The notes under the pieces were generated by a model. It had not been told where the DNA came from. It was given only the letters and a program-made list of their open reading frames with translations, and did not search any database. Positions 35,751 to 43,415 of a stretch of 51,936 nt of DNA are shown here, piece after piece (position 1 is the first letter of the stretch; each line of letters begins with the position of its first letter). This stretch comes from Filomicrobium sp. GTDB lineage: Bacteria; Pseudomonadota; Alphaproteobacteria; Rhizobiales; Hyphomicrobiaceae. Where the stretch lies: NCBI GenBank assembly GCA_002689605.1, contig NZGY01000087.1:33157-85092 (forward strand), read 5' to 3'. Position numbers and translations under genes: made by a program.

Positions 35751-35786
35751 TTATCGGTTCTCTTTTGAAGGATTGTTGGGACTGGC

Positions 35787-35801
35787 AGGCCGTTCCGGCC
35801 T
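35787..35801. promoter_or_regulatory. Palindrome in the M24/SDR divergent promoter region
   Basis: AGGCCG (35787-35792), TTC, CGGCCT (35796-35801) is a perfect 6-bp palindrome in the 92 bases between two divergent genes. It is a candidate operator for their joint control. Confidence 0.4.
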
Positions 35802-35842
35802 ATGCTGCATCCAACCACGCAAATTCAGGGAGGACAAAGACC

Positions 35843-36622
35843 ATAGAGCTGCAAGACCAGGTCGCAATCGTCACAGGTGCCGGACAGGGCATAGGACTGG
35901 CCTGCGTACTCAAGCTGGCAGAAGCGGGCGCGAACGTGGTTTGTGCCGATATTAACGGTGAGAAGGCAGAACAAGCGGCTCAGGCTGCGAAGAGTTTGGG
36001 TCGAAAAGCGCTCGTCGTAATGGCAGATCTCGGGGACGTCGGTGAGATAAGCCGGATGATTGAGGAGACTGTTGCCGAGTTTGGCCGTCTGGATATCATA
36101 GTCAATAACGCGGGCGTTACGCGCCGCGCGTACATCATGGATCTGACGGAAGAAGACTTTGACCGTATCAATCGCGTCAACGTCAAAGGTGTGTTCTTCT
36201 GCATGCAGCGCGCCGCCACCGAAATGATCAAGCAGAAATCAGGGCGCATCATCAATATCGCATCGATCGCCGGCAAGGGGTTCTACGGCACGTCCAACGC
36301 CATTTATGCGGGAACTAAGGGCGCCGTGCTGGCAATGACTAAGACTGCGGCGCAGCAACTTGGTCAACACAACATCAACGTCAATTCGGTTTGCCCCGGT
36401 ATTGTATTCACTGACATCTACAAAGGTATTATCGAGGCCGACGCCAAAAAGACTGGAAAGACACCAGAAGAGGTGCAGGCAGCAGCAGTTGCAACCGTCC
36501 CGATTAGTCGCGGCAATGAGCCGGCGGACATAGCGGACATGGTTGTCTTCCTCGCCTCCCCCCGCGCCCGCAATATCACCGGCCAAAGCCTTAACGTTGA
36601 TGGTGGCTTGGTACCAAGCTGA
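35843..36622 (+). CDS. Short-chain dehydrogenase/reductase with apparent ATA start
   Basis: A 259-residue classical SDR. It has the cofactor motif VTGAGQGIG near residues 10-18, an Asp after the second strand (VVCADING, favouring NAD), NNAG, the catalytic Ser in NIASIAG and the Tyr-X3-Lys in IYAGTKGA. The family-type start would be at MELQDQVAIVTG, but the codon there is ATA (35843-35845). GGGAGGA at 35828-35834 lies 8 bases upstream, and no ATG, GTG or TTG fits nearby. The substrate is unknown. It is divergent from the M24-fold gene and followed by a second SDR, suggesting one catabolic unit. Confidence 0.8.
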   Translation: MELQDQVAIVTGAGQGIGLACVLKLAEAGANVVCADINGEKAEQAAQAAKSLGRKALVVMADLGDVGEISRMIEETVAEFGRLDIIVNNAGVTRRAYIMDLTEEDFDRINRVNVKGVFFCMQRAATEMIKQKSGRIINIASIAGKGFYGTSNAIYAGTKGAVLAMTKTAAQQLGQHNINVNSVCPGIVFTDIYKGIIEADAKKTGKTPEEVQAAAVATVPISRGNEPADIADMVVFLASPRARNITGQSLNVDGGLVPS

Positions 36623-36725
36623 TGAAGCAGAAGTGATCCTGCCCAAGCTCTGTTGCTTCTCCTGCGGCTCAAGCATGGCAGGGCAAGCGATATAAAGCAG
36701 CAAATCGATAGAATGGAGATTGCCA

Positions 36726-37481
36726 ATGACAATTGCAGCGAGAGCGCTTCCAACGTCGCTTAGTCTTGAAGGTAAGAAGGTCATTGTAACTGGTGCGGCC
36801 AGTGGCATCGGTCGCGCGTGCGCCTTTGCCGCCATAGAGTTGGGCGCGAGTGTCTTAGTCAATGATCGGGATTCACTTGATGAAGTGGCAGTAGATCTAC
36901 GCGCGCAAGGTGGTGACGTGGAGACTTTGCAGGGCGATCTCACCGAGCCAGGCTTTATAGACAAACTGATCGCGAAAGGCCCGATCTACGGACTTGCACA
37001 TTGCGCCGGAATTCTTGGCCGTACACCGCTTCATGATCTGGATGATCCACGTGAGCGCTTTATGGAAACTATGGATGTTAACGTCCGCGTCCCCGTCGAT
37101 CTGGGTATCGCGTTGACCGATCACATGGCGGAGAATGGCGGTGGCGCGATCGTTATGATCGGCTCCGTAGCAGGCAGAACAGGCGGCACGTCCCTATCAA
37201 CACCGATCGACTATTCCGCATCAAAGGGTGCAGTGCATGTCGTTATCCGTTGGCTGTCGCGCCGCGCGGTTGGGAAGGGCGTACTTATCAATGGCATAGC
37301 ACCTGGGCCGATCGATACACCTATGACCGTCGGCAACACGACCATTGCGGACAAACTTCCCACTGGACGCAAGGGGCGGCCAGACGAGATGGCTTGGATG
37401 GTGATGATGTTGCTGACACCAGCGGCATCGTATGTGTCTGGTGCTATCCTCGATTGCAACGGCGGTTCATACGTTGGTTGA
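36726..37481 (+). CDS. Short-chain dehydrogenase/reductase (second)
   Basis: A 251-residue SDR with the cofactor motif VIVTGAASGIGRACAFA, HCAG in place of the usual NNAG, the catalytic Ser in MIGSVAGRTGG and the Tyr-X3-Lys in DYSASKGAVH. The family NGIAPGPIDTPM and CNGGSYVG ends are present. GGAGA at 36715-36719 precedes ATG 36726. It lies 103 bases after the first SDR on the same strand. The substrate is unknown. Confidence 0.88.
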   Translation: MTIAARALPTSLSLEGKKVIVTGAASGIGRACAFAAIELGASVLVNDRDSLDEVAVDLRAQGGDVETLQGDLTEPGFIDKLIAKGPIYGLAHCAGILGRTPLHDLDDPRERFMETMDVNVRVPVDLGIALTDHMAENGGGAIVMIGSVAGRTGGTSLSTPIDYSASKGAVHVVIRWLSRRAVGKGVLINGIAPGPIDTPMTVGNTTIADKLPTGRKGRPDEMAWMVMMLLTPAASYVSGAILDCNGGSYVG

Positions 37482-37508
37482 CGTGACCACCTCGTAGACG
37501 ACCGCGCG

Positions 37509-38624
37509 TTAATCCTCATCCAGCACAATCTTGGCGCGGCAGTTGCTGTTTTTATAGTCGCCAGGACCACGTGGCGTCGCATCCGGATAGAACGTGATGA
37601 TGCCTTGCTGATTGCGCACAAGGACCGTGGTGAAATCTCGTCCATCAGCCCGCACTGGTAACCAGCAACCGAGCTTCCTGCCCTTTTTGGACTTGGGGTT
37701 TTCTTGCAGCGCGCGCGTTGCAATCTTGAATATGTCCAGCGCACTTAGGGTCAGGCCGTATCCTTTAATCGGGCTGATCAACTCACCACCGGTCGGGCTC
37801 TTCAAGCGAACGCCCATTGAGTAAATCAGGCCTGGCTCAGCTTCGTTGCGTCCACCCGGCAGGCGGCAAGCTTGATTGGATTTCTGCAACTGGACATACC
37901 GGCCGTGATGATGCAATCCGCCAATCGATGTCACGCCGTTCCTAGTCTTACCTCGTTCACCACAGAATACGTGGTTGAACCCATCCTTTTTGAACCACGC
38001 ATCTGTCAGGTCGTTGAGATAGTCCTCCGGGGCAGAGCGCGCCGGTCGGTCAGCAAACACGCGCCCGTCGGTAAACTCCCTCAACTCCATCAAGATGTGC
38101 GAGTATTCGCGCATCATATCTTTGAACTCGTTCCGCGTTACGCGTTTCAGAGGTGCCCCGCAAACCCTCAAAACGGCTCGGTCAAAGTCATTGAGAACAG
38201 GTTCTTCCGGTGTGATGTCTACCTTTCGCCCGCTGTTGCCGAGCGCTACAGGGTTATCTTTGTCATCAAAGAACGGAAGGCAGGTTTGGCCGCTTGAGCC
38301 CGCGGCTTGGTTGCTGGCTGTTTGCGGCGCTGCATCAGAGAATTTTCCGCAAGAAAGGCGAACCCACTTGTTCGATGAGCCAACGCGTACAAATGCGTGA
38401 GTAGCACCGTTCTTTTTGTTGAGGCCGCGGCTGTTGAGTGTGTCTCCGGGTTGCAGTTTCGTTGGGCTGCCGCCTTTCAGTGAACGGGTTGCCTCACACG
38501 GCTTCTCAACAACGAACTGGCGCTCGTCGTCGAAGAAATGCTGCGCCTGCACCGAGTTCGCCGCAAGACAAAGCAGAGGTATCAGCGCTGTAATCTTGGC
38601 AACGCGAGAAACGGTTTGGCTCAC
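37509..38624 (-). CDS. Exported EndoU-like endoribonuclease (predicted)
   Basis: A 371-residue protein with a signal peptide (residues 8-27, likely cleavage after SVQAQ). Residues about 140-370 resemble the EndoU/XendoU fold: DAWFKKDGFNHVFCGE with a candidate catalytic His218, IGGLHHHGRY with His238-240, and an end strand GIITFYP like the terminal TxYP of that family. Residues 30-95 are a separate Cys-containing region, and a Ser/Ala linker joins them. The start is GTG at 38624 with GGAG 7 bases upstream. EndoU enzymes cut RNA at uridines; export suggests an extracellular or periplasmic role. No immunity-like partner is seen beside it. Confidence 0.62.
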   Translation of the reverse strand: MSQTVSRVAKITALIPLLCLAANSVQAQHFFDDERQFVVEKPCEATRSLKGGSPTKLQPGDTLNSRGLNKKNGATHAFVRVGSSNKWVRLSCGKFSDAAPQTASNQAAGSSGQTCLPFFDDKDNPVALGNSGRKVDITPEEPVLNDFDRAVLRVCGAPLKRVTRNEFKDMMREYSHILMELREFTDGRVFADRPARSAPEDYLNDLTDAWFKKDGFNHVFCGERGKTRNGVTSIGGLHHHGRYVQLQKSNQACRLPGGRNEAEPGLIYSMGVRLKSPTGGELISPIKGYGLTLSALDIFKIATRALQENPKSKKGRKLGCWLPVRADGRDFTTVLVRNQQGIITFYPDATPRGPGDYKNSNCRAKIVLDED

Positions 38625-38803
38625 GACAATGCTCCGCGATCAGTTTGGCTCGAAACAATAGATTAGAGATGCAGTGTGCAAGGCTTATGGCGGCCATTCT
38701 CCTGTGAGCGTAGATCTGTCTTGCCAGATACAACTGCGGCGCGGGCTCCTGCTATGGAAACTCGCGCCGCAAACAAGCATCTGGATTTTGTGACAGAGAT
38801 CGC

Positions 38804-39433
38804 CTAGCTGACCAACGTCGCCTCTGTCTTGGCGTTGACTTCGTCCATGTCGACATCAGGTGCCAACTCAACAACTTTGAGACCACCTTCAACAACGTCG
38901 AACACACCGAGATTGGTAATGATGCGGTTGACCACACCAGCACCAGTCAACGGCAGGGTGCACTCCTTGAGAAGCTTCGACTCACCCTTCTTGTTGGCAT
39001 GGTCCATGATCACGAGTACGCGACCAACTCCGGCAACGAGGTCCATGGCACCGCCCATGCCTTTGACCAGCTTGCCTGGGATCATCCAGTTGGCGAGGTC
39101 GCCGTTTTCTGCGACTTCCATCGCCCCAAGAATAGCAAGGTTGATATGGCCGCCACGGATCATGGCAAAGCTGTCCGCGGATGAGAAATAGCTCGTGCGA
39201 TCGAGCTCTGTGATCGTTTGCTTGCCGGCATTGATGACATCTGCATCGATCTCATCGTCGGTCGGGAATGGTCCCATGCCGAGCATGCCGTTCTCTGACT
39301 GAAGCGTGACGTCGACACCTTCCGGGATATAGTTTGAAACAAGTGTTGGTATGCCGATGCCGAGATTGACGTAGAAACCGTCTTCAAGTTCTTGGGCTGC
39401 CCGAGCAGCCATCTGATTGCGATCCCAAGGCAT
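38804..39433 (-). CDS. 3-oxoacid CoA-transferase subunit B
   Basis: The 209-residue beta subunit of a two-subunit 3-oxoacid CoA-transferase (ScoB/AtoA/PcaJ type). It has [19 protein letters not shown] and the catalytic Glu in [14 protein letters not shown] near residue 47, then [14 protein letters not shown] and [16 protein letters not shown] precedes the ATG. The alpha subunit gene ends 24 bases upstream. The pair transfers CoA from succinyl-CoA (or another donor) to acetoacetate or a similar keto acid. Confidence 0.93.
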
Positions 39434-39457
39434 GAGATGCTCCTTTAATCTAGCTGC

Positions 39458-40153
39458 TTATGCTGCCCGCGTAGTGCGTTGTTCGATGCGCTTCTCATGC
39501 TCGCCTTGCAAAATGCGCTGCACGAAAATACCGGGCGTATGGATGAGATCCGGGTCCAGACTGCCGACAGGGACCAGCTCTTCGACTTCGGCAACTGTGA
39601 ACACCCCGGACATGGCGCAGACGGGGTTAAAGTTGCGCGCAGCTTTGCGATAAATCAGGTTGCCTTGCTCATCGCCTTTCCAGGCTTTGACGATAGCAAC
39701 ATCGGCTTTGATGCCGCGCTCCATGATGTAGGTTTCGCCGTCAAACTCTTTGTGTTCTTTGCCTTCAGCAATCTGGGTTCCAACGCCAGTCTTCGTGTAG
39801 AAGCCCGGAATGCCTGAACCACCGGCACGCAAGCGCTCAGCGAGTGTGCCTTGCGGATTGAACTCAATCTCCAGTTCGCCCGACAAATACTGCCGCATGA
39901 ACTCGTCATTCTCACCAACGTAGGATGACACCATTTTTTTGACCTGCTTGGTCTGCAGGAGGAGGCCGAGACCAAAATCATCCACGCCGGCATTGTTTGA
40001 GACGACAGTCAGGTCCTTGACGCCCGAGTCACGGATCGCCGTGATCAGGTTCTCAGGAATTCCACAAAGTCCGAAGCCACCAGCCGCGATCAGCATCCCG
40101 TCTTTCAGGGCGCCATCCAACGCTTCGGTGGCGCTGGAACATACCTTCTTCAT
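39458..40153 (-). CDS. 3-oxoacid CoA-transferase subunit A
   Basis: The 231-residue alpha subunit. The family motif [15 protein letters not shown] lies near residues 23-37, followed by [15 protein letters not shown], the SSYVGEN segment and [24 protein letters not shown] precedes the ATG. It is encoded after the beta-keto-acid cleavage enzyme (33-base gap) and before subunit B, in one operon. Acetoacetate is the most likely acceptor because the cleavage enzyme releases acetoacetate or its CoA ester. Confidence 0.94.
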
Positions 40154-40186
40154 CCAATCCTCCTCACAAGCCTGGTGCGCGAGGCA

Positions 40187-41020
40187 TCAAGCCGCCAATT
40201 GCAAACCAAGAATTTCGCGTGCCTGCTGCCAGGTGGCAACGGGGCGCTCGTACTTTTCACACATGTCCGCTGCAACCTTAACTAGGGCTGCGTTCGATGG
40301 TGCCAACGTATGGCGGTCGAGGCGGACGTTGTCCTCCATGCCGGTCCGCACGTGGCCGCCCTCAGAAATGCACCACTCGTTCAGCTTGATCTGGTTCGGG
40401 CCGATACCGGCACCGCACCACTTGGCATCAGGAGCCAAACGCTCAACCGTCTGCTTATAGAAATCAAACACCTGACGGTCACCGGGCATTGCATTCTTGA
40501 TACCCATGACGAATTGAACATAGAGCGGCCCTTTCAGCCGACCGTCCTCTACCATCTTCACTGCCTGGAAGATGTGCGACAGGTCAAAGGCCTCAATCTC
40601 CGGCTTGACGTTGTACTTGATCGTTTCGGAAGAAAGCCAGCTTATCAGTTCTGGTGTGTTCTCGTAAACCCGGTTTGGGAAGTTGTTCGAACCAACCGAT
40701 GGCGAGGCCATGTCCGGCTTCAACGACAGCATGCCACCGCGTTCACGACCATTGCCTGTTCGCCCACCAGTGGAAAGCTGAACAATCATGCCAGGGCAGT
40801 GCTTGCGCAGACCTTCTGTCAGACGGGCAAACTTTTCAGGGTCAGCGGTCGGGGTCTGATCATCGTTACGGACGTGGCAATGGGCAATGGATGCACCTGC
40901 ATCGAACGCTTCGTGTGTCGATTCAATCTGCTCTTCAACAGTTATCGGAACGGCAGGGTTGTCGGCCTTGGTTGGCACCGAACCAGTGATCGCTACGCAA
41001 ATGATGCAGGGATTGGACAT
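40187..41020 (-). CDS. Beta-keto acid cleavage enzyme (BKACE, DUF849)
   Basis: A 277-residue member of the BKACE family, which combines a beta-keto acid with acetyl-CoA to give acetoacetate and a new CoA ester. The zinc-binding His47 and His49 are in GASIAHCHVRND, and the later EGGHVRTGMEDN supplies the conserved Glu. Known members act on 3-keto-5-aminohexanoate in lysine fermentation or on dehydrocarnitine; the substrate here cannot be read from sequence. ATG 41020 is chosen over a longer frame reaching 41137. The gene is followed by the CoA-transferase pair. Confidence 0.92.
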   Translation of the reverse strand: MSNPCIICVAITGSVPTKADNPAVPITVEEQIESTHEAFDAGASIAHCHVRNDDQTPTADPEKFARLTEGLRKHCPGMIVQLSTGGRTGNGRERGGMLSLKPDMASPSVGSNNFPNRVYENTPELISWLSSETIKYNVKPEIEAFDLSHIFQAVKMVEDGRLKGPLYVQFVMGIKNAMPGDRQVFDFYKQTVERLAPDAKWCGAGIGPNQIKLNEWCISEGGHVRTGMEDNVRLDRHTLAPSNAALVKVAADMCEKYERPVATWQQAREILGLQLAA

Positions 41021-41063
41021 GAACGCATACTCCCAGGTCTTAGTCTTTTTAGATTGGCCGCGA

Positions 41064-42029
41064 TCAGAGCATCGCCAGCTTGGTTCCAATGTTCCGGAAC
41101 GTGGTTTTGACACGGCGAACCGTACCAGTTTCGGCACGCATCACGACGGTCTCAGTCTCCGCAAAGTCGCCGCGGAAATGCACGCCCTCAAGGAGTGAGC
41201 CGTCAGTAACGCCAGTCGCGGAGAAGATCACATCACCAGAGGCCATGTCATTAATGCTGTATTTCTTCTGGACGTCAGCACCCATCTTCTCGGCCCGTAC
41301 CCGCTCTTCGTGGTTTGATGGCAGAAGACGACCTTGCATTTGGCCGCCAATGCATCGCAGAGCGGCCGCCGCAAGAACACCTTCTGGGGCTCCACCGGAA
41401 CCAAGATAGATGTCGATGTTGGTTTGATCAGTATCAGTCGTCCAAATGACGCCTGCAATGTCCCCGTCGGGGATCAGTTGGACCGCAGCACCAGTACCGC
41501 GAACAGCTGCTATTAGCTCAGCATGCCGCGGACGGTCCAGAATGCAGGCCGTTATTTCTTCAACAGTCACCCCTTTGGCTTTGGCAAGCGCATGAACGTT
41601 GTCTTCAGCCGAAGCATCGAGGTCAACGAGACCATCAGGCAGGCCAGGGCCCACCGCGATTTTGTCCATATACATATCTGGGGCATGCAGCAGGCCACCA
41701 CGTTCGGCGATTGCTAGAACAGCCAGAGCATTCGGCATGGCCTTGGCACAGATTGTTGTGCCTTCCAAAGGATCAACTGCGATATCGACGGCAGGACCCT
41801 GTCCCGTGCCAACCTTTTCGCCGATATAAAGCATCGGCGCTTCGTCCATCTCGCCTTCGCCGATAACCACGAGGCCATCTATATTAATGCGTCCCAATTC
41901 CTTGCGCATTGCATCTACAGCGACTTTATCGGCAGCTTTGACATCACCGCGGCCCCGCAATTTGGCAGCGGCTATAGCAGCCCCCTCTGTTACCCGGCCG
42001 ACTTCCAGAACCAGTGTACGTCCCAGCAT
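41064..42029 (-). CDS. glpX: Fructose-1,6-bisphosphatase class II
   Basis: GlpX hydrolyses fructose 1,6-bisphosphate in gluconeogenesis and related pathways. The 321-residue product has the class II motifs VVIGEGEMDEAPMLYIGE and DIAVDPLEGTTICAKAMP, then the metal region IDIYLGSGGAPEGVLAAAAL. ATG 42029 follows a strong GGGAGGAG site; seven further in-frame codons exist upstream. It sits after hom (54-base gap), an order shared with rhizobia, where recJ commonly follows; here the keto-acid cleavage operon follows instead. Confidence 0.95.
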   Translation of the reverse strand: MLGRTLVLEVGRVTEGAAIAAAKLRGRGDVKAADKVAVDAMRKELGRINIDGLVVIGEGEMDEAPMLYIGEKVGTGQGPAVDIAVDPLEGTTICAKAMPNALAVLAIAERGGLLHAPDMYMDKIAVGPGLPDGLVDLDASAEDNVHALAKAKGVTVEEITACILDRPRHAELIAAVRGTGAAVQLIPDGDIAGVIWTTDTDQTNIDIYLGSGGAPEGVLAAAALRCIGGQMQGRLLPSNHEERVRAEKMGADVQKKYSINDMASGDVIFSATGVTDGSLLEGVHFRGDFAETETVVMRAETGTVRRVKTTFRNIGTKLAML

Positions 42030-42083
42030 CCCCAATCTCCTCCCAGTCACCGTGTCCGGTCTATAGTCTCACTCTAGTGCGCT

Positions 42084-43415
42084 TTACCGCAGTTGCTCTA
42101 TTCTTATCATTTGCGGTGGATGCGCAATTTTACCGTCTTTCTCAATAGCTTCCAGCGCCGCACGTATCGCTGCTTCAGTTGTTTCATGTGTGATCAAAAC
42201 AACCGAAGTTGGGCTTCCAAGTTCCGGTCGAACGCCCGTTCCGGGCAGCTGATGCTTGGGACGACGCTGGACAATGCTTTCCAGGGAAACTTCCTGCTCT
42301 GCCATGCGCGTTGCGATAGCCGCCATCGCGCCTGGTCGATCATAGACTGATAGCCGGATGTAGTAGGCTCCGGTGTGTTGGCCCAACGTGGCCCTTTGAT
42401 AGGGAGCGAGTGACCAGGCTGGCGTTACGAAAGGCGCACCGGTCAAGCCATAACAGGCCACATCACGAATATCGCTCATCACCGCTGAAGCAGTCGCTTC
42501 TGCACCGGCTCCGGGCCCAACAAGCAGAAGATTGCCAACAAAATCGCCGTCGATCGCAACGCAGTTGGTTACGCCAGAGACTTCGGCAATGGCTGAATGC
42601 TTGGCAACCATCGCCGGGTGAACGCGCTGATCAATACCGGTCTCGGTGCGCACCGCAACGCCCAGCAGTTTGATCCTGTAGCCAAGCTCATCTGCGGCTT
42701 CGATGTCTGCAGGCGATATCGACTCGATGCCTTCGAGATGAATCTGATCAAAAGCGACCTGGGTATCGAATGCAATACTCGTCAGTAGTGAGAGTTTGTG
42801 AGCCGCATCATGACCGCCAATGTCGAAAGTCGGGTCGGCTTCGGCATAACCGAGGTCTTGCGCTTCTTCAAGAACGTCCTCGAACGGCAGACCTTCTTCC
42901 TGCATTTTGGTGAGGATGTAATTGCAGGTGCCGTTCAGGATACCGTAGACGCGACTGACCTCGTTGCCAGCGAGAGCTTCCCGCAGTGTCTTGATGACTG
43001 GGATGCCGCCAGCAACAGCTGCTTCGTAGGCGAGCGAGACACCCTTGTCTTCAGCAATCGAAGCTAATTCAACGCCGTGCTTTGCAAGCAATGCTTTATT
43101 GGCTGTCACAACATGCTTGCCTGCTGCCAAGGCCGCAGCTACGGCATCATGCGCTGGTCCGTCTTCACCACCTACAAGTTCGACGAATACATCGATGTCG
43201 TCGGAGCTGGCCAATGCGACCGGATCATCGAACCACTTGGCAGCGCTTATGTCGATCCCGCGGTCCTTGTTGCGGTCACGCGCCGAAACGGCAGTTACAT
43301 TTAGCGTTTTACCTGTGGCAGTCTGCAGGCGCTCGCGGTGTTTTTCGAGGAGGCGAACAAGTCCCGCACCTACGGTACCCAGTCCGGCAATGCCCAGTCT
43401 CACGGTATTCTCCAT
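42084..43415 (-). CDS. hom: Homoserine dehydrogenase
   Basis: Homoserine dehydrogenase reduces aspartate semialdehyde to homoserine, the precursor of threonine and methionine. The 443-residue product has the NAD(P) motif IAGLGTVGAGLV near residues 9-20, the catalytic region YEAAVAGGIPVIKTLREAL and GGHDAAHKLSLL, and a C-terminal ACT domain (YYIRLSVYDRPGAMAAIATR) that usually senses threonine. It lies 7 bases after the aminotransferase gene, so they are co-transcribed. The metY product downstream in the pathway is encoded 4 kb away. Confidence 0.97.
   Translation of the reverse strand: MENTVRLGIAGLGTVGAGLVRLLEKHRERLQTATGKTLNVTAVSARDRNKDRGIDISAAKWFDDPVALASSDDIDVFVELVGGEDGPAHDAVAAALAAGKHVVTANKALLAKHGVELASIAEDKGVSLAYEAAVAGGIPVIKTLREALAGNEVSRVYGILNGTCNYILTKMQEEGLPFEDVLEEAQDLGYAEADPTFDIGGHDAAHKLSLLTSIAFDTQVAFDQIHLEGIESISPADIEAADELGYRIKLLGVAVRTETGIDQRVHPAMVAKHSAIAEVSGVTNCVAIDGDFVGNLLLVGPGAGAEATASAVMSDIRDVACYGLTGAPFVTPAWSLAPYQRATLGQHTGAYYIRLSVYDRPGAMAAIATRMAEQEVSLESIVQRRPKHQLPGTGVRPELGSPTSVVLITHETTEAAIRAALEAIEKDGKIAHPPQMIRIEQLR

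What the first reader, a model, noticed from the sequence alone, without database searches (positions are those of the whole stretch)
37509..38624. Exported EndoU-like endoribonuclease without visible immunity partner
A signal peptide is joined to a C-terminal region with DGFNHVFCGE, GGLHHHGRY and a TFYP-type end, matching the EndoU pattern. Bacterial EndoU domains are mostly toxin tips with immunity genes. Here it stands alone in an ordinary Sec-exported protein with its own N-terminal region, so a periplasmic or environmental RNA-degrading role is possible.
Basis: partly seen in the sequence, partly recalled or inferred. Interest (0 to 1): 0.55.

Follow-up and report, generated by a model that had tools for sequence, protein, structure and literature searches.

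The report
Exported EndoU ribonuclease, not toxin-linked
This gene encodes a secreted RNA-cutting enzyme of the EndoU family whose predicted shape resembles the animal version more than the short bacterial ones, and it carries no sign of a poison-antidote pair; the activity has not been tested.

Summary
37509-38624 (-) encodes a 371-aa Sec-exported protein. Its C-terminal part is a strong EndoU_bacteria match (PF14436, 71.4 bits against a 25.3 cut-off). An AlphaFold2 model (pLDDT 92) superposes best on calcium-activated human EndoU (Z 14.8) and Xenopus XendoU (Z 13.5). His218, His238 and Thr344 are invariant in 47 of 47 aligned family members, Lys287 in 46.

The premise that bacterial EndoUs are mostly toxin tips does not hold for these relatives: in a sample of 385 Alphaproteobacteria genomes 20 carry EndoU and all 20 look exported. 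Relatives with this long layout occur in Hyphomicrobiaceae, Thiothrix, Cellvibrio and many Nostocales. No neighbouring gene is shared between cyanobacteria and proteobacteria. An Anabaena member, assigned here by gene order, is reported in the exoproteome (PMC10957091).

Two points are new to me. A helical region overlays an extension that a recent paper calls eukaryote-specific and calcium-sensing. Paired cysteines could replace immunity by making folding depend on export. I read it as an extracellular or periplasmic RNase. Uridine preference, calcium dependence and biological role are inferred, not shown.

The parts
37509..38624 (-). complete gene, 371 aa, GTG start, stop at 37509-37511
   Evidence: homologues in relatives
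38544..38624 (-). signal peptide, residues 1-27 (VQA/Q)
   Evidence: hydropathy; cleavage site read by eye, no signal-peptide program was available
38319..38543 (-). SH3-like (SH3b-type) beta domain, residues 28-102, with Cys43 and Cys92
   Evidence: model; VIA Z up to about 9 to bacterial SH3-like domains; alignment A5; no Pfam match
37989..38285 (-). helical region PFFD...CG...W, residues 114-212, before the EndoU core; Asp120, Asp136 near-invariant, Cys155 invariant
   Evidence: overlays part of human EndoU 161-409
37578..37988 (-). EndoU catalytic core, residues 213-349
   Evidence: PF14436; fold
37971..37973 (-). His218, aligned to human His285
   Evidence: 47 of 47; alignment
37911..37913 (-). 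His238, aligned to human His300
   Evidence: 47 of 47; alignment
37764..37766 (-). Lys287, candidate for the catalytic lysine (human Lys343)
   Evidence: 46 of 47; equivalence to Lys343 inferred
37593..37595 (-). Thr344 of the TFYP strand (Tyr346 two residues on)
   Evidence: 47 of 47 and Tyr 45 of 47; a stretch of coronavirus 229E NSP15 aligns here weakly

Best explanation
The gene encodes a Sec-exported, disulfide-stabilised endoribonuclease of the EndoU superfamily with an XendoU-like catalytic unit. Shown by sequence and prediction: signal peptide, SH3-like N-domain, a helical region plus EndoU core with two invariant histidines, a near-invariant lysine and an invariant threonine, and paired cysteines. 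Inferred: after export the protein folds oxidatively in the periplasm (or outside) and cuts RNA there, preferably at uridylates, by RNase A-like acid-base catalysis leaving 2',3'-cyclic phosphate. The likely use is destruction and salvage of RNA outside the cytoplasm. The producer would be safe because the enzyme becomes active only outside the cytoplasm, so no immunity gene is needed. The SH3-like domain probably holds it to the cell wall or another surface.
For: PF14436 over cut-off; 47 of 47 aligned members match PF14436. Model pLDDT 92.1 superposes on 9ftw (Z 14.8, rmsd 3.6, 201 aligned), 2c1w (Z 13.5, rmsd 3.9, 197 aligned) and NSP15 entries (Z up to 11.9, rmsd 2.9, 146 aligned). Profile search finds 9ftw (E 1.5e-4) and 2c1w (E 6.2e-4) with the two histidines aligned. 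Catalytic positions conserved. Cys155 and Cys221 are in 47 of 47; Cys115 and Cys253 occur together in 16 and are both absent in 31; Cys43/Cys92 co-vary (19 both, 4 only the second, 24 neither); Cys320 in 44 and Cys362 in 46 of 47. Hydrophobic N-terminal segment in 55 of 57 relatives, the other two just under the threshold of 1.8 at 1.76 and 1.77. No neighbour family within 1.5 kb is shared between cyanobacteria and proteobacteria in 60 loci. An EndoU-like protein, All2314, was detected in the Anabaena exoproteome (PMC10957091, passages); it is numbered next to a ketol-acid reductoisomerase and an aldo/keto reductase (All2315, All2316; PMC4390845, passages), the neighbours found in loci L052, L058, L082 of this family. 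The window's genome also encodes an RNase T2, an enzyme type that is usually exported (recalled).
Against: No activity, localisation or substrate has been tested. All2314's membership rests on gene order, not on its sequence, and that exoproteome holds 98 predicted cytoplasmic proteins, so lysis is possible. The SH3-like domain has no Pfam match. The gene is patchy (8 of 103 genomes of the family, own included), so it is not a core function.
Confidence: 0.7

Rival explanations
1. It is an antibacterial toxin like CdiA-CT or MafB EndoU tips, delivered to neighbours, with an immunity gene elsewhere or none needed.
For: Same Pfam family as toxin EndoUs; MafB EndoU toxins have a cognate immunity protein (PMC4287609, passages); toxin-type copies exist in the phylum sample (L120 in a 563-aa ORF, L121 in a 1111-aa ORF). 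Seven Nostocales loci share a small upstream ORF family without a Pfam match that could be a partner there.
Against: No toxin trafficking domain or variable tip; the N-domain and core are conserved together and orthologues align at nearly full length; no conserved neighbour across lineages; PADLOC and PHROGs scans are empty.
Confidence: 0.12
2. It acts on eukaryotic cells, as the periplasmic RNase Ribocin of Pseudomonas aeruginosa acts on ribosomes of nematodes that feed on it.
For: Precedent of a signal-peptide RNase of the related RNase A fold without a known dedicated secretion route (PMC13189344, passages).
Against: Ribocin is a different family; the relatives here include many cyanobacteria and Thiothrix; nothing links the gene to hosts.
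Confidence: 0.07
3. It is an envelope protein with an EndoU fold whose RNase activity is weak or lost and whose main role is binding (RNA, peptidoglycan) through the SH3-like and helical parts.
For: The window copy sits on a long branch (0.75) and has Asn where most relatives have Asp or Glu before His218.
Against: All catalytic positions are kept.
Confidence: 0.06

Closest known systems
Eukaryotic EndoU/XendoU (PF09412; 2c1w, 9ftw)
   Same: Best structural match over about 200 residues including a helical part before the core; animal EndoUs have a signal peptide and a His/His/Lys set (PMC11275989, abstract, sections 25, 26, 28 and passages).
   Different: Window protein has no PF09412 match; other family members reach only weak scores (27 of 47 at E up to 1, best 4.9e-4). 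The Ca-site acid Glu284 is Asn217 in the window copy, though acidic in 38 of 47.
Bacterial EndoU toxins (MafB, CdiA-CT; PF14436)
   Same: Same Pfam family and catalytic motifs.
   Different: No immunity gene, no toxin trafficking parts, extra helical region, several conserved cysteines, SH3-like domain.
Short exported EndoUs of Alphaproteobacteria (L014-L019, L021-L029, L031, L032)
   Same: Exported-looking and standalone; PF14436.
   Different: 144-286-aa open frames with the first histidine soon after the hydrophobic segment where read; none of the 10 scanned shows a PF09412 match.
Coronavirus NSP15 (NendoU)
   Same: Fold Z up to 11.9 over 146 residues; GGLH and TFYP motifs align (weak).
   Different: No shared N-terminal domains shown; PF19215 match at E 0.12, below its cut-off.
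All2314 of Anabaena sp. PCC 7120
   Same: Described as putative endoU-like nuclease, found in the exoproteome (PMC10957091, passages); neighbours match this family's loci.
   Different: Its sequence was not seen; the family members with the same neighbours (L052, L058, L082) lack the SH3-like domain.

Membership tests
EndoU_bacteria (PF14436) | Score over Pfam's gathering cut-off over the full model | tested here: met
   71.4 against 25.3 bits, model positions 2-129 of 129
EndoU superfamily | Two catalytic histidines, lysine, and Thr/Tyr in the last strand | tested here: met
   47/47, 47/47, 46/47, 47/47 and 45/47; the histidines align with human His285 and His300; Lys by conservation and position only
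EndoU superfamily | EndoU fold | tested here: met
   predicted model; Z 10.4-14.8 to 27 EndoU-superfamily entries, which are rows 1-27 of the 50 shown
EndoU superfamily | Uridylate-preferring cleavage with 2',3'-cyclic phosphate product | not testable with these tools
   needs an assay
XendoU (PF09412) | Score over Pfam's gathering cut-off | tested here: not met
   no match for the window protein at E up to 10; weak matches in 27 of 47 family members
XendoU (PF09412) | Helical N-terminal extension packed on the core | tested here: inconclusive
   201 residues of model 92-323 superpose on 9ftw 161-409, so at least 63 of the 94 residues 92-185 are included; but the helical part alone found no EndoU entry in the rows returned from 275 chains aligned and no sequence match
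Calcium-activated EndoU | Acidic residue at human Glu284 (Ca site 1) | tested here: not met
   Asn217 in the window copy; acidic in 38 of 47 family members and in 1 of 13 short alphaproteobacterial ones with a readable motif
Calcium-activated EndoU | Glu290 linking the calcium site to catalytic His285 | tested here: met
   Glu223 in the window; Glu or Asp in 44 of 47; but the Glu is also common in short EndoUs, so it is not diagnostic
Polymorphic toxin with EndoU tip | Adjacent immunity gene | tested here: not met
   no partner ORF beside the gene; no neighbour family shared across lineages in 60 loci
Polymorphic toxin with EndoU tip | Trafficking or repeat domains N-terminal to the tip | tested here: not met
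   only PF14436 over its cut-off in Pfam; SH3-like plus helical region in the model
Bacterial SH3 (SH3b) | SH3-like barrel | tested here: met
   model residues 1-75, Z 7.4-9.1, mostly to SH3-like chains; middling Z, no Pfam match, ligand unknown

The most novel reading that the evidence does not exclude
Bacteria hold a bona fide XendoU-type lineage: an exported EndoU with the helical extension thought to be eukaryote-specific and, in most members, the acidic calcium site next to the first catalytic histidine. The enzyme would be off in the low-calcium, reducing cytoplasm and switched on by calcium and disulfides after export. That would replace an immunity protein and make the calcium switch older than eukaryotic EndoUs, or shared with them by transfer.
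Probability: 0.25. Interest if true: 0.7.

Novelty: new variant of a known kind. Interest (0 to 1): 0.42.

Why it matters
PMC11275989 (a 2024 preprint; passages and sections 25, 26 and 28 read) attributes calcium control of EndoU to an N-terminal extension that it calls eukaryote-specific and describes bacterial EndoUs as smaller. A bacterial family that carries a comparable helical region, is exported, and is present in culturable cyanobacteria makes that statement testable with simple enzymology. It also shows that EndoU is not mainly a toxin domain in the alphaproteobacterial sample, which matters for annotation: a PF14436 hit alone should not be called a toxin.

Tried and rejected
RNase T2 link: I recalled that alphaproteobacterial RNase T2 proteins carry a similar N-terminal domain. 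Tested on 18 RNase T2 loci from 17 of 190 genomes: no significant match of the SH3-like profile (best E 0.16). Rejected for this sample.

Other partners of the SH3-like domain: searches in class samples (289 genomes, E up to 0.01; 240 genomes, E up to 0.1) found only this EndoU family strongly; the other five matches were marginal (E 0.004 to 0.055), on open frames of 58-175 aa.

Single-sequence scans led nowhere: genome contigs with the window protein alone confirmed 0 of 30 candidates; viral contigs with A2 confirmed 0 of 66; phmmer and a 7-row profile against PDB found no EndoU. NCBIfam, PHROGs and PADLOC had no match.

Helical region alone: profile search against PDB gave one chance hit (E 2.1), and its own model (pLDDT 91.7) matched no chain with Z of 5 or more. 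EndoU entries are absent from that list, so the equivalence to the eukaryotic extension rests on the whole-protein superposition.

Horizontal origin: GC (0.551) and GC3 (0.616) are like the neighbours, so no composition signal. The tree (56 of 59 loci plus window; L076, L078, L084 left out as partial or broken) places the window on a long branch with weak support (85/47), so its exact place is unsure.

Rows dropped: the 47-row alignment A4 used 46 of 59 loci (3 partial or broken, 10 near-copies removed), and for ten rows only the part from just before PFFD on. In the short-EndoU motif count L022, L024, L027 and L032 were not read by the pattern. L119's frame was not recovered and it is not counted. 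In the 57-relative hydropathy count L076 and L084 were left out.

Promoter and terminator scans gave nothing usable. An operon with the upstream CoA-transferase genes is neither shown nor excluded.

Full report
What is there. The window gene 37509-38624 (-) is an intact 371-codon frame with a GTG start. It is the only PF14436 match in its genome. Residues 1-27 look like a Sec signal peptide (cleavage site by eye). The mature protein was modelled with AlphaFold2 on 47 aligned sequences: mean pLDDT 92.1, with only a linker at mature residues 74-84 under 50. Three parts follow: an SH3-like barrel (mature 1-75), a helical region (about 87-185) and the EndoU core (186-322).

Is it EndoU? Yes. Pfam gives E 1.2e-19. 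The model's best structural matches are calcium-activated human EndoU (9ftw, Z 14.8, rmsd 3.6, 201 aligned) and Xenopus XendoU (2c1w, Z 13.5, rmsd 3.9, 197 aligned), then 25 coronavirus NSP15 entries (Z 10.4-11.9, 137-146 aligned); the next rows, mostly SH3-like matches of the N-domain, have Z 9.1 and lower. A profile of the family finds 9ftw (E 1.5e-4) and 2c1w (E 6.2e-4) in PDB sequences and aligns the two histidines with human His285 and His300, the pair whose alanine mutants are dead in the human enzyme (PMC11275989, section 26). Across 47 rows His218, His238 and Thr344 are invariant, Lys287 is in 46, Tyr346 in 45.

How common is it? Within its taxonomic family 8 of 103 genomes have it, own included. 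The family is Hyphomicrobiaceae, inferred from contigs of these genomes that reappear with titles. In a sample of the order 2 of 297 genomes have a PF14436 match, in the class 20 of 385, in the phylum 6 of 299, own included each time. With an alignment query, 59 loci were found in named genomes: Hyphomicrobiaceae, Thiothrix, Cellvibrio, Colwellia, a few other proteobacteria, and a majority of cyanobacteria, mostly Nostocales. The N-terminal module varies: SH3-like in 19 of 47 rows, two SH3-like repeats in L053, an unassigned beta-rich-looking module in several Nostocales copies, nothing in others; the helical region plus core is what all share.

Toxin or not? In the class sample all 19 non-window EndoU loci have a strongly hydrophobic 12-residue segment (KD mean 2.08-3.19): upstream of the first histidine in the 15 where the motif was read, and in the N-terminal part of the frame in the other four. 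The window protein has one too. Two of the 19 (L020, L030) have the window's long layout; the rest are short standalone proteins. Toxin-type copies were met only in the phylum sample: a 563-aa and an 1111-aa frame. For the long family, ORFs within 3.5 kb in 60 loci were clustered. Within 1.5 kb no cluster is shared between cyanobacteria and proteobacteria or between Hyphomicrobiaceae and Thiothrix; the widest ones are a ketol-acid reductoisomerase and an amidase-like gene (named from their sequence, by eye), within cyanobacteria. One exception deserves mention against my reading: seven Nostocales loci share a small same-strand ORF family upstream with no Pfam match, which could be a partner there.

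Self-protection. Eight cysteines of the window protein fall into patterns expected of disulfides: 155 and 221 in 47 of 47; 320 and 362 in 44 and 46; 115 and 253 both present in 16 and both absent in 31; 43 and 92 together in the SH3-like domain (19 both, 4 only the second, 24 neither). I infer an oxidatively folded enzyme that is harmless before export. This is an inference from conservation and co-occurrence; no distances were measured.

Where does it go? In Anabaena sp. PCC 7120 a 'putative endoU-like nuclease', All2314, is among four proteins less abundant in the exoproteome of a zur mutant (PMC10957091, passages). The next locus numbers, All2315 (ketol-acid reductoisomerase) and All2316 (aldo/keto reductase), are named in PMC4390845 (passages). 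In L052, L058 and L082 a ketol-acid reductoisomerase gene ends 104-161 nt before the family gene on the same strand, and an aldo/keto reductase also lies near. So All2314 very probably belongs here, by gene order. That exoproteome includes 98 predicted cytoplasmic proteins, so the detection is supportive, not decisive.

What is unusual? PMC11275989 says that bacterial EndoUs have a smaller catalytic domain, and that an N-terminal alpha-helical extension is eukaryote-specific and senses calcium through sites probed by Glu284 and Asp179 mutants, with Glu290 as relay. In the window model 201 residues between 92 and 323 superpose on 9ftw 161-409; since the core from 186 to 323 has 138 residues, at least 63 of the 94 residues before it take part. 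PF09412 (XendoU) weak matches occur in 27 of 47 family members (best E 4.9e-4) and in 0 of 10 short exported EndoUs scanned, of 17 held. The residue aligned with Glu284 is acidic in 38 of 47 members but is Asn in the window copy, and acidic in 1 of 13 short ones with a readable motif. The Glu290 position is Glu or Asp in 44 of 47 but is also common in short EndoUs, so it says little. Against this: the helical region alone did not find an EndoU entry, and the window protein itself has no PF09412 match. The claim 'XendoU-like architecture' is therefore moderately supported, and 'calcium-activated' is open, least likely for the window copy itself.

Literature. Searches in the open library: EndoU with bacteria and signal peptide, EndoU with cyanobacteria, XendoU with Nostoc (none), all2314 (one paper), XendoU with bacteria and homolog, EndoU with ribonuclease A, EndoU with extracellular, ribonuclease and SH3. 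In the listings and passages seen I found no description of this long exported family, but the library lacks most subscription papers, and I recall, from no call, that early nidovirus papers aligned XendoU with a Nostoc protein. So parts of it may be in print.

Verdict. Real, correctly identified, and probably ordinary in its enzymology, with an architecture that makes one published generalisation testable.

Noticed in passing
   Followed up: no
   Followed up: no
L049, L059, L060, L061, L064, L068, L074, upstream of the EndoU gene: A small same-strand ORF family (163-174 aa in the longer copies seen) with no Pfam match in the three members scanned recurs before the Nostocales EndoU; possible partner or plain synteny.
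   Followed up: partly
L047, L049, L059-L061, L064, L068, L072-L074 and the partial L076: In these Nostocales copies the SH3-like domain is replaced by another module of about 150 aa; Pfam found nothing for it in the one scanned (L047).
   Followed up: partly
L053:3431-4735: A cyanobacterial copy with two SH3-like repeats in tandem before the helical region.
   Followed up: no
   Followed up: no
L103 (window genome, contig C130:42822-43340): The window's genome also encodes an RNase T2, a second RNase of a usually exported type.
   Followed up: partly
window 35780-43415: Neighbours are ordinary metabolic genes: SDRs, two CoA-transferase subunits, a beta-keto acid cleavage enzyme (Pfam), then by eye a class II FBPase and a homoserine dehydrogenase.
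   Followed up: partly
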